From Gemmatimonadaceae bacterium (GTDB lineage: Bacteria > Gemmatimonadota > Gemmatimonadetes > Gemmatimonadales > Gemmatimonadaceae): a DNA stretch of 64,000 bases. The notes under the pieces are model-generated. The model was not told where the DNA came from. It was given only the letters and a program-made list of their open reading frames with translations, and did no database searches. The stretch is taken from positions 62,001 to 126,000 of the forward strand of contig JAICWO010000005.1 in the NCBI GenBank assembly GCA_025934775.1. Reading direction: 5' to 3'. Shown one piece after another: positions 2-60,678 of the stretch (the first letter of the stretch is position 1; every line of letters starts with the position of its first letter). The position numbers and the translations under genes are program-made.

Positions 2-1861
2 GCGTGGGTTCTCCCGACGGTCGACGCGCTGCCGGGCATTCCGCTCAACATCATCCGCGTACGCGACGGCGCCGATCCGCAACTCGTGCACAACGAGCTG
101 GCGACGCTCGCCGCGAATCTCGCGGGCGACGCGGGCGAGGTGAAGGGATGGACGCGCTTCTACATGAAGCCGTGGATGTCCACGCAGTTTCACGCGACAC
201 ACTTTCACTACGCGCTGTTCGGCGCCGTGCTCGCGGTGCTGCTCGTCGCATGCGCGAATCTGGCGAATCTGCAACTCGCGCGCGGACTCGGGCGCAGCCG
301 CGAGCTCGCGATGCGCGCGGCACTCGGCGCATCGCGCGGGCGACTCGTACGGCACATGCTCGCCGAGACGGCGCTCGTCGCGGCGGGCGGGCTCGTGCTC
401 GGCGTGGTGCTCACGTTCTGGGGCGTACACCTGCTCTCCGCGACGATTCCGGACACGATCGCCGATTACATCGTCAAGCCGCACACGAATTGGCGCGTGC
501 TCGCGTTCGCCGCGCTCACAGCGGTCGTCTGCGTCGTTTTGGTGGGGTTGGCGCCAGCGCTCCGCGTCTCGCGCGCGGATCCAAACGAGTTGTTGAAGAG
601 CGGCGCGGGCACCGGCGCGCACAAGAAGCACACTCGACTCTATGGATGGCTCGTGATCGTCGAGATCGGGCTCGCGCTCGCGGTGCTCTGCGGATGCTCG
701 GCGCTGCTCGAGTCGGCGTGGCATCTCTCCGATCGCGAGTATCGCGTGAAGGCGCTCTTCGGCTATGATCCCGATCCGCTCCTGGAGTCGACCGTTTCTT
801 TGCGCGCGGCCCCGAGCACACGCGTGCCGGTCGCAGACATGGCGGCGGATCTCGTCGAGCGCATTCGCTCGGTGCACGGCGTCGCCGACGCGAGCGTACA
901 CCTCGGCGCGCCGACCGAGAACCGCGGCGTGATGGCGGACGACGGACATGGAATCCTGAAGGAAGTGCCCGCGCCGAATTGGGGCGTGGTCCTCGTGTCG
1001 CCGTCGTACTTCACGACCATGGGCTTACCGATCATTCGGGGCCGCGATTTCGCGCCCGGCGATCGCGACACGCGCAACGTCGTCGTCGACAGCCTGACGG
1101 CGCTCTTCATCTGGCCGCATCAGGATCCGATTGGAAAACTCATAAAGTTCGGCGACGCGAAGGCGGCGGTGCCGTGGAGTCGCGTCGTGGGCGTGGTGAG
1201 CGACCATCGCGATCGCAAACAGTACCCCGATCCGCTGCGCGAGCTGCCCGGCCTGTATGGCGTGTACCGCGTCGTGAGCAGTTGGGACAGCGTGTCGGTG
1301 AAAAACGCCAAGGGCGCCTACCCGCTCAGCGTCACCGTCCGCGCGACGGGAGACGCCGCCGCCACGGCGATCGCGGTGCACCACGCGCTGATTCCGTTCA
1401 GCACCGGCGGTGTGCTCTCGGTCTCTACGTACGACGAGATGTATCGCATCAGTTGGCGGCGCACGCGGAGCGAGTTCGTCGGCTCATTGTTCAGCATTTT
1501 CGCCGCGATCGGAATCGGGCTGGTCGCGATCGGCGTGTACGGCATCGTCGCGCACTCGGTGGCCGAGCGCCGGCGGGAGATCGGCGTGCGGATCGCGCTC
1601 GGTGCGACATCGCGCGACGTGCTGCACGCGATCCTGCGGGAAGGAAACGTGCTCGCCCTCGCCGGCGTCGCGCTGGGACTCTATCTCACGCTCCAGTTGA
1701 AGGGCAATCTCATGGCGTTTCTCGACGACGCGACCTTCTTCGACGCTCCGCTCTACGGCGCGATGGGCGTGCTCCTGTTTACCATCGTCATCATCGCCGC
1801 AGTGCGGCCGGCACTCCAGGCGACGCGGATCGATCCGGCGGAGTCGTTGAGAAATGAGTAG
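2..1861 (+). CDS. ADOP-type FtsX/MacB-like ABC permease, C-terminal part (5' truncated by window)
   Basis: The reading frame is open from the first bases of the window, so the gene begins upstream; about 619 residues are visible. An FtsX-type membrane block (VLLVACANLANLQLARG, followed by a cytoplasmic RELAMRAALGAS segment) is followed by a long extracytoplasmic domain and a second FtsX block near the C-terminus (IVAHSVAERRREIGVRIALG). This duplicated permease layout is that of the ADOP family seen mainly in Acidobacteria and Gemmatimonadota. It is presumably an inner-membrane permease of unknown substrate that works with a MacB-type ATPase. No ATPase is adjacent in the visible part. Confidence 0.9.
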   Translation, partial: AWVLPTVDALPGIPLNIIRVRDGADPQLVHNELATLAANLAGDAGEVKGWTRFYMKPWMSTQFHATHFHYALFGAVLAVLLVACANLANLQLARGLGRSRELAMRAALGASRGRLVRHMLAETALVAAGGLVLGVVLTFWGVHLLSATIPDTIADYIVKPHTNWRVLAFAALTAVVCVVLVGLAPALRVSRADPNELLKSGAGTGAHKKHTRLYGWLVIVEIGLALAVLCGCSALLESAWHLSDREYRVKALFGYDPDPLLESTVSLRAAPSTRVPVADMAADLVERIRSVHGVADASVHLGAPTENRGVMADDGHGILKEVPAPNWGVVLVSPSYFTTMGLPIIRGRDFAPGDRDTRNVVVDSLTALFIWPHQDPIGKLIKFGDAKAAVPWSRVVGVVSDHRDRKQYPDPLRELPGLYGVYRVVSSWDSVSVKNAKGAYPLSVTVRATGDAAATAIAVHHALIPFSTGGVLSVSTYDEMYRISWRRTRSEFVGSLFSIFAAIGIGLVAIGVYGIVAHSVAERRREIGVRIALGATSRDVLHAILREGNVLALAGVALGLYLTLQLKGNLMAFLDDATFFDAPLYGAMGVLLFTIVIIAAVRPALQATRIDPAESLRNE

Positions 1862-8912: not shown

Positions 8913-9139
8913 GCGGGAAATGCTAGCCGCGGACAACCGCACGGCGTCCGCGGAAAGGCGCGGAGAAAACGTGAACGGCGGTCTCTATCCAAAGGGCGAG
9001 AGTGACCCGCCAACAGACCGCGGCGCTCGGGATGACTACGCGCTCCGGCGTTGGCCTGTCAGAGCCCCGCGATCTCCGCGCCCTTCCGCGGAATCCCTGC
9101 ACGTCTCCGCAGCCCTGCCGTTCCTGATTCGTCCGCCGC
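8913..9139. repeat. Intergenic region with pieces of the dispersed 50-bp repeat and a REP-like half-site
   Basis: The segment tccgcggaaaggcgcggaga (about 8949) and, inverted, ctccgcgcccttccgcgg (about 9081) plus cgtctccgcagccctgccgt (about 9103) match the repeat at 3349/3630. A ctcgggatgac half-site lies at about 9027. No gene is seen. Confidence 0.5.
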
Positions 9140-57008: not shown

Positions 57009-58427
57009 ATGCCCACATTGCATGATATCTCGCATGAGCCGGGGCGCACCTCGCTGCCGGTCGAACCTCCGCGCTGGGCTGATGGCGCGCTGAAGGTCGC
57101 GCAACGCGTGATCGAGGCGCTGTTCGGACCGCCGCTCACGCGCGAGTTCACGGTACGCTACTGGAACGGGATGGTCGAGTGGCCAGCCCATGAATCGCGT
57201 TTCACGCTCGACATTCGCACGCCCGCCGCGTTGCGCCGGATGTTGCTGCCGCCATCCGAGCTCTCGTTCGTCGAAGCGTATCTCTATGGCGACATCGAGA
57301 TCGACGGCGACGTCGAATCCGCCGTCTCGCTGGGCGACGTCGCCGCGCAGCGCATTGGCTCGCCCGGCAAGCTGGTCGCGCTCATGCGCGAGGTGATGTC
57401 GCTTCCGTCGAGCGATGACGAGCCAACCGACTCCAAGGGGAGGCGCCGCGTCGCGCGCGGGCTGCTGCGCTTCGGCCGCGCACACTCGCAGCGCCGCGAC
57501 GCGCAGGCGGTTCGGTTTCATTACGATTTAGGTAACGAGTTCTACTCGCTCTGGCTCGATCGGCAGATGGTCTATTCGTGCGGCTATTTCCCGCGCGGCG
57601 ACGAGTCGCTCGACGATGCCCAATCGGGCAAGCTGGATCTGATCTGCCGCAAGCTCCGCCTCGCCTCGGGCGAGCACCTGCTCGACATCGGATGCGGCTG
57701 GGGCGCGTTGATCATTCACGCGGCTCGGCACTACGGCGTGCACGCCACGGGCATCACATTGAGCAAGGAGCAAGCGGCGTTCGCGCGGGACCGGGTCGAA
57801 CGCGAAGGTCTGACGGACCGCGTCACGATCGAGCTCCGCGACTATCGCGACCTGCCGCGAGATGAGCGTTTTGATAAGATCTCGAGCGTCGGCATGATCG
57901 AGCACGTGGGCGAGCGGCGGCTGGATGACTATTTCGCCGTGGCGAACGGCGCGCTCCGTCCGGGCGGTCTGTTCCTGAATCACGGCATCGTCAGCGTGGA
58001 CGGGGCACGCCCGCACAACAAGATCGATGCCGTGTTGGGGCGCGTCTGGAAGCGCGGAGCGTTCATCGACCGCTACGTCTTCCCCGATGGCGAGCTGCTC
58101 CCGATCGCGACCGTGATCGGCTCCGCGGAACGGAACGGATTCGAGCTGCGCGACGCCGAAAACCTGCGCGAGCACTACGTGACGACGCTGCGGCACTGGG
58201 TCGACCGGCTCGAGCACCGTGAAGCCGAGGCGCGCACGATCGTGGGCGACGTGACCTACCGGGTCTGGCGGCTCTACATGGCCGCGTCGGCGCATGCGTT
58301 CAATGTGGGGCGAATCGGCATCGTGCAGTCGTTGCTCGGGAAGCCGGATGAAGCGGGGAGAGTACGAATACCACGGAGCCGCGCCGACTTGCGAACGGCG
58401 CAAACAACTAACGGCGCAAACAACTAA
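57009..58427 (+). CDS. cfa: Cyclopropane-fatty-acyl-phospholipid synthase
   Basis: 472 residues. N-terminal lipid-contacting domain, then a SAM-methyltransferase core with HLLDIGCGWGALIIHAARHY and KISSVGMIEHVG. FLNHGIVSVDGARPHNKIDA and YVFPDGELLPIATV are typical of Cfa. It converts unsaturated acyl chains to cyclopropanes. The last 11 residues (AQTTNGANN) are read through the tandem-repeat region, so the end of the protein is repeat-derived. Confidence 0.92.
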   Translation: MPTLHDISHEPGRTSLPVEPPRWADGALKVAQRVIEALFGPPLTREFTVRYWNGMVEWPAHESRFTLDIRTPAALRRMLLPPSELSFVEAYLYGDIEIDGDVESAVSLGDVAAQRIGSPGKLVALMREVMSLPSSDDEPTDSKGRRRVARGLLRFGRAHSQRRDAQAVRFHYDLGNEFYSLWLDRQMVYSCGYFPRGDESLDDAQSGKLDLICRKLRLASGEHLLDIGCGWGALIIHAARHYGVHATGITLSKEQAAFARDRVEREGLTDRVTIELRDYRDLPRDERFDKISSVGMIEHVGERRLDDYFAVANGALRPGGLFLNHGIVSVDGARPHNKIDAVLGRVWKRGAFIDRYVFPDGELLPIATVIGSAERNGFELRDAENLREHYVTTLRHWVDRLEHREAEARTIVGDVTYRVWRLYMAASAHAFNVGRIGIVQSLLGKPDEAGRVRIPRSRADLRTAQTTNGANN

Positions 58428-59008
58428 CGGCGCAAACAACTAACGGCGCTGACTTCCAAACGGCGCTGACTTCCAAACGGCGCGGACTTCCGAACGGCGC
58501 GGACTTCCGAACGGCGCGGACTTCCGAACGGCGCGACGCTTCCGAACGGCGCGGCACGAACGGCTGCGCCGTTCGGCAGAGACATAGCGGCGCAAGCCGC
58601 GAAGGGCGGGTGACGGCGCAACGGCGAAGGGCGGGTGATGGCGCGAGCTGTGAGCAGCGGGGCCGGAGGCCGGCATCCGGCCTACCGTCCGCTGTTCGCA
58701 GTCACGCTGTTCGCAGTCACGCTGTTCGCCGCAGCGCCGTTTCGCGCCATCCGCCGTTGCGCCCCTACCCGCAGTCCGTCCTTTGCGCCGTCATGTCTCT
58801 GCCGAAGGCCGCGCAGTTTGGGAGTTCGCGCCGTTCGGAAGTCAGCGTCGTTCGGAAGTCAGCGCTGTTCGGAAGTCAGCGCCGTTCGGAAGGCAGCGCT
58901 GTTTGTTGTTTGCGGCGTTAGTTGTTCGCGGCGTTAGTTGTTCGCGGCGTTAGTTGTTCGCGGCGTTAGTTGTTTGCGCCGTCAGTTGTTTGCGCCGTTA
59001 GTTGTTCA
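58395..59008. repeat. Large imperfect inverted repeat built of 16/17-bp tandem units
   Basis: The left arm has about three 16-bp units (ggcgcaaacaactaac), then five or six 17-bp units (ggcgcggacttccgaac). The right arm mirrors it: four 17-bp units (gccgttcggaagtcagc), then about six 16-bp units (ggcgttagttgttcgc). Between them ttcggcagagacat (about 58571) pairs with atgtctctgccgaa (about 58793), and the centre aggccggcatccggcct is a perfect hairpin at about 58667-58683. Smaller direct repeats lie inside (gctgttcgcagtcac twice; gcgaagggcgggtga twice). It lies between two convergent genes. Confidence 0.85.
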
Positions 59009-59857
59009 AGCGCTCACCGATTCAACGCCGATTACCGCCAGGTCTTCTGCTCCTCTTCCGGCTGCAATGAGCTGATCCATCCGCTCCGCCACCCCGGGCA
59101 GCACCGCGAGCCGCTTGCCCGCGGCCGTGTCGAGCATCAACCGCACGTCCTTGCGTGCCATCGACAGCTCGAAGCTCGGCGCGAAATTGCCGGCTACCAT
59201 GTTGCGGCCGCGTCCGGAAATCAGCGCCGCGGTGTTGAAGTAGTCGAGGATGTCGAGGACGTTCGCCGCCTGGACGTTCGCGGCGGTCGCGATCGCGTAG
59301 ACGTCGGCGACGAGCGCGCTCACGCCGATGATGAACGCGTTGCCGCACAACTTGTACACGGCCGCGAGGTCCGGCCGTTCGCCGACGTACGCGACACGCT
59401 CGGCCATCCTCGCGAGCTCCGCGCGAATTGCGTCGAAGATCGCGCGCGGGCCGGCCGAGAGGATCGTGCCCTTTGCCTGGCGCGCCGCGGCGGGCCCGAT
59501 GAACACGGGACAGTGGATGTAGCGAACGCCCGCCGCGTTCAGGCGCCGCGCACGTTCGGCGGTCGCCGCCGGTTCCGTAGTCGTGTGGTCGATGATGATC
59601 GCGTCGTCGTCGAGCGCGGGGCGCAGCGCGGCGATCACCTCTTCCACCACCGGATCATCCTTGAGCACGAGATGCACGTGCTTGATGCCCCGAACGGCGT
59701 CGGCCGGAGTTCGGGCCACGGTCACGCCGAACTGCTCGAGTGCGCGTGCCTTCTCGATGGTGCGGTTCCAGACGGTGACGTGGTCGCCGCGCTTGGCCGC
59801 GGCTTCGGCGAACGCGCCCCCGAGCAAGCCGGTTCCCAGAAATGCGATGTTGGTCAT
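59006..59857 (-). CDS. NAD(P)-binding beta-hydroxyacid dehydrogenase family protein
   Basis: 283 residues. Rossmann fold start IAFLGTGLLGGAFAEAAAKR and VTVWNRT, then the all-alpha C-terminal domain with the catalytic lysine in AAVYKLCGNAFI. Relatives include 3-hydroxyisobutyrate and tartronate semialdehyde dehydrogenases. The stop codon is at the edge of the giant repeat. Confidence 0.9.
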   Translation of the reverse strand: MTNIAFLGTGLLGGAFAEAAAKRGDHVTVWNRTIEKARALEQFGVTVARTPADAVRGIKHVHLVLKDDPVVEEVIAALRPALDDDAIIIDHTTTEPAATAERARRLNAAGVRYIHCPVFIGPAAARQAKGTILSAGPRAIFDAIRAELARMAERVAYVGERPDLAAVYKLCGNAFIIGVSALVADVYAIATAANVQAANVLDILDYFNTAALISGRGRNMVAGNFAPSFELSMARKDVRLMLDTAAGKRLAVLPGVAERMDQLIAAGRGAEDLAVIGVESVSA

Positions 59858-60599: not shown

Positions 60600-60615
60600 G
60601 AGAGTATTAGTGACG

Positions 60616-60678
60616 CTCCACGCTCCACGCTCCACGCTCCACGTTCCACGTTCCACGTTCCACGTTCCACGTTCCAAG
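60616..60678. repeat. Heptamer tandem repeat array, nine units
   Basis: Four ctccacg, four ttccacg and one ttccaag, all 7 bp, directly in front of the esterase gene (start 60599 on the minus strand). The same heptamer class as at 1865-1940. It occupies the place where the promoter would be expected. Confidence 0.8.

What the first reader, a model, noticed from the sequence alone, without database searches (positions are those of the whole stretch)
58395..59008. Approximately 600-bp inverted repeat made of 16- and 17-bp tandem units
The two arms mirror each other unit by unit, and the centre is a perfect hairpin. It lies between convergent cfa and dehydrogenase genes and has invaded the cfa 3' end. 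It is too ordered for an ordinary terminator and may be a mobile MITE-like or structured-RNA element.
Basis: seen in the sequence. Interest (0 to 1): 0.7.

Follow-up and report, generated by a model that had tools for sequence, protein, structure and literature searches.

The report
Mobile hairpin element at gene ends
The 600-base mirror-image repeat is a stripped-down copy of a mobile hairpin element whose full versions carry one small gene (the '23S rRNA intervening-sequence protein'); such hairpin-plus-gene units sit at the ends of genes in many bacterial phyla, which ties together three things so far described separately.

Summary
In detail: 58394-59007 is a ~614-bp inverted repeat of 16/17-bp tandem units (142 nt at 87% complementarity; RNA-fold z -17). 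The centre is not a perfect hairpin. It is one of seven dispersed, diverged copies in this genome. Two insertion sites are empty in sister species. At this site the element replaces the last residues and the stop of cfa.

One copy (contig C7) carries a 23S_rRNA_IVP gene (PF05635) in its loop. Cognate IVP genes sit between related 17-mer arms in other species. More broadly, 50 of 59 IVP genes in same-family genomes lie in inverted-repeat loops (41 of 942 control positions), and 51 of 74 in other phyla at a looser cut-off (18 of 717). Arms are mostly 7-bp arrays. They change sequence between elements but stay complementary (compensated changes 15, 2.8 expected). They abut gene 3' ends (median 3.5 nt). 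Repeat-unit length follows the IVP tree. One genome holds two 90%-identical copies with unrelated flanks.

Best reading: an IVP-less, MITE-like member of an IVS-like hairpin element class. How it moves is inferred; no reverse transcriptase or Y1 transposase was detected in the genome.

The parts
58394..58449 (+). left outer arm: 16-bp tandem units AACGGCGCAAACAACT (3.5 copies)
   Evidence: TRF; mirrored at 58901-59007
58442..58554 (+). left inner arm: 17-bp tandem units AACGGCGCGGACTTCCG (6.6 copies)
   Evidence: TRF; inverted partner 58828-58903
58539..58579 (.). local hairpin CTTCCGAACGGCGCGGC / GCTGCGCCGTTCGGCAG at the inner end of the left arm
   Evidence: inverted pair I24
58566..58644 (+). 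left half of the inner stem, with 25-bp units; shared with the C7 copy that carries the IVP gene
   Evidence: I4; TRF; C7:39763-40000 matches element positions 31-268 at 84%
58645..58733 (.). central spacer with small imperfect hairpins and 15-bp units (58690-58729); in the C7 copy the IVP gene occupies the loop
   Evidence: own-genome PF05635 search reports no match here
58734..58812 (+). right half of the inner stem
   Evidence: I4
58828..58903 (-). right inner arm: inverted 17-bp units (4.5 copies)
   Evidence: TRF
58901..59007 (-). right outer arm: inverted 16-bp units (6.7 copies)
   Evidence: TRF
57009..58427 (+). cfa (CMAS-family) gene; its last ~11 codons and stop (from about 58392) come from the element
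   Evidence: Pfam PF02353 E 9e-96; C-terminus compared with G042 (L182)
59006..59857 (-). NAD-binding dehydrogenase (6PGDH/3-HIBDH type), convergent; its stop codon 59006-59008 straddles the right edge of the element
   Evidence: Pfam PF03446 E 4e-31

Best explanation
The region is a non-autonomous, IVP-less copy of a mobile hairpin element. The full form is just two inverted arms of tandem repeats around one gene for a 23S_rRNA_IVP (S23p / four-helix-bundle) protein, the same plan as the intervening sequences of 23S rRNA but placed between protein genes, at their 3' ends. Shown here: the architecture, dispersal, empty sites, duplication of the whole unit, arm co-evolution, site preference for gene 3' ends, purifying selection on the IVP, co-inheritance of arm type with IVP lineage. 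Inferred: read-through transcription of the neighbouring genes makes the hairpin RNA; RNase III can trim it, so that insertion after a stop codon costs little; the IVP pentamer recognises its cognate hairpin (as RNA or extruded DNA) and promotes copying into new gene ends, with host enzymes doing the chemistry; the tandem units in the arms are renewed in step by slippage or template switching in the hairpin. IVP-less copies such as this one would be moved in trans by the IVP of the C7 copy, or are now dead.
For: Seven copies in the genome. C7 copy has an IVP ORF in its loop, PF05635 E 8e-17. Cognate IVPs between related 17-mer arms in G064 (51% identical protein), G083, G046, G020 (IR scores 55, 77, 70, 82.5; arm similarity to the window 41-63 against about 12 shuffled). 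6 of 7 IVP genes of this genome lie in inverted-repeat loops, each with other arms. 50/59 same-family IVP genes with IR score >=25 against 41/942 control positions; 51/74 in other phyla at >=20 against 18/717. Two 90%-identical arms+IVP copies with unrelated flanks in G034. Empty sites for the C6 copy in G095 and the C12 copy in G014. Compensated arm changes 15 against 2.8 expected at orthologous elements, broken pairs 26 against 46. Arm edges at gene 3' ends: 84 3' ends against 42 5' ends, median 3.5 nt, convergent 27 against divergent 7. IVP dN/dS 0.06-0.33 in the nine pairs where it could be computed. Unit length 15-17 against 7 clusters on the IVP tree: 3 changes, shuffled mean 10.4.
Against: The window copy itself has no IVP remnant, so the link is through its sister copies. 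No target-site duplication was recognised. Among the seven own copies the arms are not better matched within than between copies, except C7 (permutation p about 0.2), so the IVP-less copies show no sign of continued renewal. Roughly 15-30% of IVP genes show no clear arms (for example L050). Mobility by the IVP is not tested; a host or unlinked enzyme could do everything. The gene-end analysis uses a composition-based gene guess.
Confidence: 0.7

Rival explanations
1. A classical MITE: the arms are terminal inverted repeats of a DNA transposon and are moved by a transposase elsewhere in the genome; the IVP is a passenger.
For: Dispersed short palindromic copies and empty sites; most copies of the 16/17-mer family carry no gene.
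Against: Arm sequence differs wholly between elements of one genome, which a sequence-specific transposase could not follow; no target-site duplication recognised; whole unit L112/L119 holds only arms and IVP; arm type follows the IVP lineage. Other transposase families were not searched.
Confidence: 0.1
2. A REP/REPIN-like element moved by a Y1 (RAYT, IS200/IS605) transposase acting on the hairpin as single-stranded DNA.
For: Palindromic intergenic elements near gene ends resemble REPs; hairpin recognition would not need a fixed arm sequence.
Against: No PF01797 match in this genome (99% complete) or in IVP-rich G004, G005, G006, G009, G016, G019.
Confidence: 0.05
3. Retro-element route: the hairpin RNA with bound IVP (an Avd relative) is reverse transcribed by a reverse transcriptase acting in trans, as in diversity-generating retroelements.
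For: IVP is homologous to Avd according to PMC10053308; a hairpin RNA with the gene in its loop suits an RNA intermediate; insertion at transcribed gene ends.
Against: No PF00078 match in this genome nor in G004, G005, G006, G009, G016, G019, although G004 and G019 hold lineage-specific IVP expansions. The RT could have been lost, be diverged or be on an element absent from the assembly.
Confidence: 0.2
4. Not a mobile element: a bidirectional RNA hairpin (terminator or mRNA 3' stabiliser) between convergent genes that grows by slippage, kept because it is useful there.
For: Position between convergent 3' ends; very stable fold; arms kept complementary by compensated changes.
Against: Dispersed homologous copies and a duplicated whole unit, empty sites in sisters; no intrinsic-terminator pattern in the element. 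It could still act as 3' hairpin after insertion.
Confidence: 0.15

Closest known systems
Intervening sequences (IVS) of 23S rRNA with an S23p/IVP ORF (Coxiella, Leptospira; PMC4990558)
   Same: Inverted-repeat stem closed over a loop that may encode an IVP; the Coxiella IVS even has tandem heptamers GACAGAT before the ORF; suggested long ago to be mobile.
   Different: Ours lie between protein genes at their 3' ends, exist in several copies per genome, and have long arms of tandem 7- or 15-17-mers; the window copy has lost (or never had) the ORF.
Heptameric G-rich repeats of Xanthomonas and Nostoc (GGGAATC; PMC4692102) and heptanucleotide elements of Geobacter metallireducens (PMC2700814)
   Same: Intergenic tandem heptamers, in Xanthomonas about 70 close inverted pairs per genome and lying close to the preceding ORF (average 28 nt).
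   Different: These were read as quadruplex or regulatory repeats. Passages I read do not link them to IVP genes; here the same GGGAATC-type arms flank IVP genes of Xanthomonas (L213, L215, L216, L252).
MITEs
   Same: Short, dispersed, palindromic, mostly without coding capacity.
   Different: No target-site duplication or parent transposase found; arms are tandem arrays whose sequence changes from element to element.
REP/REPIN elements with RAYT (Y1) transposase
   Same: Intergenic palindromes near gene 3' ends.
   Different: Far longer, tandem arms; no Y1 transposase in the genome.
Avd accessory protein of diversity-generating retroelements
   Same: Homologous protein family (PMC10053308).
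   Different: No RT detected in the genome and none in the duplicated unit.

Membership tests
23S rRNA intervening sequence (IVS) | lies inside the 23S rRNA gene | tested here: not met
   between cfa and a dehydrogenase gene
23S rRNA intervening sequence (IVS) | terminal inverted repeats forming a long stem | tested here: met
23S rRNA intervening sequence (IVS) | loop may encode an IVP (PF05635) | tested here: inconclusive
   absent in the window copy, present in sister copy C7 and in cognate elements of other species
23S rRNA intervening sequence (IVS) | excised from the transcript by RNase III | not testable with these tools
   shown for Coxiella IVS in PMC4990558; needs RNA work here
MITE | several dispersed short palindromic copies | tested here: met
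   seven copies
MITE | empty sites in relatives | tested here: met
   C6 site in G095, C12 site in G014; the window site has no syntenic counterpart
MITE | target-site duplication | tested here: inconclusive
   none seen by eye in L112/L119 or at the empty sites, but edges are blurred by tandem units and divergence
MITE | ends match those of a transposase-bearing parent | not tested
   no general transposase search was made; sister copy C7 bears an IVP instead
REP/REPIN with RAYT | Y1 transposase in the genome | tested here: not met
   PF01797: no match
Diversity-generating retroelement | reverse transcriptase in the genome | tested here: not met
   PF00078: no match
Intrinsic terminator | GC stem followed by a T run | tested here: not met
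   none found at 58300-59100 on either strand
Known structured RNA (Rfam) | match above a family's gathering score | tested here: not met
   only sub-threshold microRNA-model hits to the hairpin

The most novel reading that the evidence does not exclude
IVP hairpins are a widespread class of autonomous mobile elements whose only protein is the IVP: no reverse transcriptase and no known transposase or recombinase. The IVP lineage sets the repeat-unit length of the arms (7 against 15-17), and both arms are rewritten in step, so that the element keeps its palindrome but not its sequence. The 23S rRNA intervening sequences and much of the intergenic heptamer repeats of bacteria would be members or relics of this class.
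Probability: 0.3. Interest if true: 0.92.

Novelty: new variant of a known kind. Interest (0 to 1): 0.74.

Why it matters
The IVP/S23p/'four helix bundle' family is common across bacteria and has no known function; the origin of 23S rRNA intervening sequences has been an open question since 1990; intergenic heptamer repeats have been described in Xanthomonas, Nostoc and Geobacter without a cause. The evidence here puts the three into one object, a hairpin with the gene in its loop that moves between gene ends, and gives direct tests: delete the IVP and watch the arms and insertions. A mobile element without a reverse transcriptase or a recognisable transposase would be new biochemistry.

Tried and rejected
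Rfam search: only sub-threshold plant/insect microRNA-model hits to a hairpin, rejected. Assembly artefact: rejected, diverged copies with different flanks on several contigs. Intrinsic terminator: no T run. RT (DGR-like) and Y1 transposase as resident movers: not found in this genome nor in several IVP-rich genomes, so disfavoured. Arm co-evolution within the seven own copies: not supported except C7. First genome-contig scan with the C7 protein found nothing and the first alignment was too diverse; a closer alignment worked. The IVP gene nested by chance in a 16/17-mer hairpin: rejected because cognate IVPs lie between related arms in other species. Synteny of the window site itself in sister species: none found, cfa and the dehydrogenase are on different contigs in G042, so no empty site could be shown for this very copy. 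Literature: nine full-text searches found no paper linking IVP genes with flanking inverted heptamers; subscription papers and preprints are not covered.

Full report
OBSERVATION. Tandem Repeats Finder gives 16-mers (58394-58449) then 17-mers (58442-58554), and in mirror order 17-mers (58828-58903) then 16-mers (58901-59007). The best inverted pair is 142 nt at 87% complementarity, with an inner pair at 75% and an 89-nt spacer between. Folded as RNA the region is 17 standard deviations more stable than its shuffles. The centre is not a perfect hairpin, and unit numbers differ between the arms.

A DISPERSED FAMILY. The window is part of a 4.88-Mb, 47-contig genome. A search with the element finds seven copies, 70-85% identical: this one, C12:178337-178926, C20:65403-65973, C20:155224-155673, C20:317843-318313, C6:106491-107104 and C7:39763-40792 (sequences). 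All share the arms and an inner stem around ..GGCAGAGACATAACGGCGCAA... Their flanks differ.

INSERTION. With 250-bp flanks of all seven copies as query, sister species give two empty sites: for the C6 copy G095 has 136 bp where this genome has about 700 (L168), and for the C12 copy G014 has 156 bp where this genome has about 666 (L178). In G042 the C12 site holds a different small palindrome built of GGGTTTA-type units (L174). For the window copy the two neighbours lie on different contigs in G042, but that cfa shows the native end...PPSRADLYVS*; here it reads ...PRSRADLRTAQTTNGANN*, so the element starts at about 58392 and supplies the last residues and the stop. The dehydrogenase stop codon (59006-59008) straddles the other edge. 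Copies C12 and C20c likewise sit at the last codons of the gene to their right (and the sequence).

A GENE IN THE LOOP. The C7 copy is about 1,030 bp because its loop holds an ORF, PF05635 23S_rRNA_IVP, E 8e-17. The genome has seven PF05635 genes. Six of them lie in the loop of an inverted repeat and each repeat is of another sequence, for example GGGACGTGGGACGTG, GAGACGCGAGATGCGAG, TTGTTGCGGGTCGTGGG. The seventh (L050) has none.

GENERALITY. In 59 same-family genomes, 47 carry PF05635. I took 60 loci with 4-kb flanks and aligned 330 bp left of the gene with the reverse complement of 330 bp right of it. 50 of 59 usable genes score 25 or more; of 942 shifted control positions in the same loci, 41 do (Mann-Whitney p 5e-27). 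In 74 usable loci of other phyla (Xanthomonas, Flavobacterium, Planctomycetota, Acidobacteria, Clostridia and others), 51 score 20 or more against 18 of 717 controls; at 25 or more it is 31 of 74 against 5 of 717. Periods of the flanks are chiefly 7: 35 of 56 periodic flanks in the family, and 35 at 7 plus 12 at 14 of 54 in other phyla, while controls show a period in about 3 of 116-134 flanks. Reading inwards, G exceeds C in 82 of 89 arm pairs.

THE UNIT MOVES. In genome G034 two copies (L112, L119) are 90% identical over 526 bp, from arm tip to arm tip, and their flanks are unrelated. The unit holds only arms and IVP. The same intergenic site beside a ychF-like gene carries an IVP element in nine genomes with different arms; the IVP tree asks for at least two separate arrivals there and shows expansions within G004 and G019.

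ARMS CHANGE TOGETHER. At three orthologous elements in G006/G039, 15 of 168 stem pairs show the same change on both sides where shuffling predicts 2.8, and 26 are broken where 46 are predicted; paralogous pairs behave alike (15 against 4.3, 47 against 63). The shuffle keeps base make-up but not alignment error, so the excess is a guide rather than an exact test. At the ychF site eight of nine elements show their left arm matching its own right arm (scores 16-42), mostly above the other elements' right arms (9-26), the weak cases being L142 and L159. Among the seven own copies only the IVP-bearing C7 copy shows this.

WHERE THEY SIT. With a composition-based guess of genes, arm edges adjoin 84 gene 3' ends and 42 gene 5' ends, median distance to the 3' end 3.5 nt; 27 elements are between convergent and 7 between divergent genes. 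The gene guess is crude and some of the very negative distances are its errors.

THE 17-MER FAMILY AND ITS OWN IVP. A sister species, G064, has an IVP 51% identical to that of C7 inside 17-mer arms related to those of the window. A search with the C7 protein finds close relatives in G083, G064, G067, G046 and G020. Where both flanks are available (G083, G064, G046, G020) they form inverted arms of 16-17-mers, similar to the window arms well above shuffles; G067 has a contig end on one side and gives arm similarity only. On a tree of 90 IVPs the unit length (15-17 against 7) needs 3 changes where shuffled labels need 10.4 (0 of 500 as low). The 18 added loci were picked by likeness to the C7 IVP, and near copies help such clustering, so this shows co-inheritance of arms and IVP, not that the IVP makes the arms.

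SELECTION. IVP pairs show dN/dS 0.06-0.33 in the nine of eleven pairs where dS could be computed; dS is near saturation in several. Few of the listed IVP frames hold a stop.

MECHANISM. Shown: a hairpin unit that has been dispersed, sits at gene ends, and keeps its arms complementary. Inferred: transcription by read-through, trimming by RNase III as for the Coxiella IVS (PMC4990558), binding by the IVP pentamer (solved relative 2gsc; Avd kinship in PMC10053308), and copying by host enzymes. The genome has no PF00078 and no PF01797 match, and neither have the IVP-rich G004, G005, G006, G009, G016 and G019. Other transposases were not searched.

KNOWN PIECES. The Coxiella IVS paper records heptamers before its S23p ORF, RNase III excision, and older proposals that IVSs were mobile. 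The Xanthomonas/Nostoc paper records intergenic heptamers, some 70 inverted pairs, close to the preceding ORF, and 'generally' no link with mobile elements. The Geobacter paper lists heptanucleotide elements as regulatory. I found no paper joining them with IVP genes, within an open-access library only.

VERDICT. The window feature is an IVP-less, MITE-like member of an IVS-like hairpin element class, new in place and build rather than in principle. The general link between IVP genes and inverted tandem arms is the interesting part.

Noticed in passing
window 60613-60676: Array of about nine 7-bp units (CCACGCT/CCACGTT) at the start of the GDSL lipase ORF, without an inverted partner within 1.5 kb; looks like a single arm of the heptamer kind.
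   Followed up: partly
window 8930-9100: Inverted repeat (GCGGACAACCGCACGGCGTCCGCGGAAAGGCGCGGAG.. / ..CTCCGCGCCCTTCCGCGGAATCCC) just after a gene end; the only other one above the score cut-off in the window scan.
   Followed up: no
L174 (G042:C2), between the matches to the C12 flanks: The site that is empty in G014 and holds the 16/17-mer element here carries an unrelated small palindrome of GGGTTTA-type units in G042, without an IVP: a re-used site.
   Followed up: partly
L117, L122, L125, L126, L128, L140, L142, L159, L166 around the IVP gene: One intergenic site beside a ychF-like gene carries IVP elements in nine genomes of different genera, from at least two separate insertions, with different arms.
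   Followed up: partly
L050 (G000:C12:39205-39519): The one IVP gene of this genome without inverted flanks, on a long branch next to what looks like an ATP synthase alpha gene; may be a domesticated copy.
   Followed up: no
L168 (G095:C14), empty C6 site: Right after the stop codon the empty site has three tandem GGCGGAGC units, perhaps the seed or the scar of such an array.
   Followed up: no
window 58665-58685: The spacer holds the palindromic phrase GGCCGGAGGCCGGCATCCGGCCTACC, not shared with the other copies as far as read.
   Followed up: no
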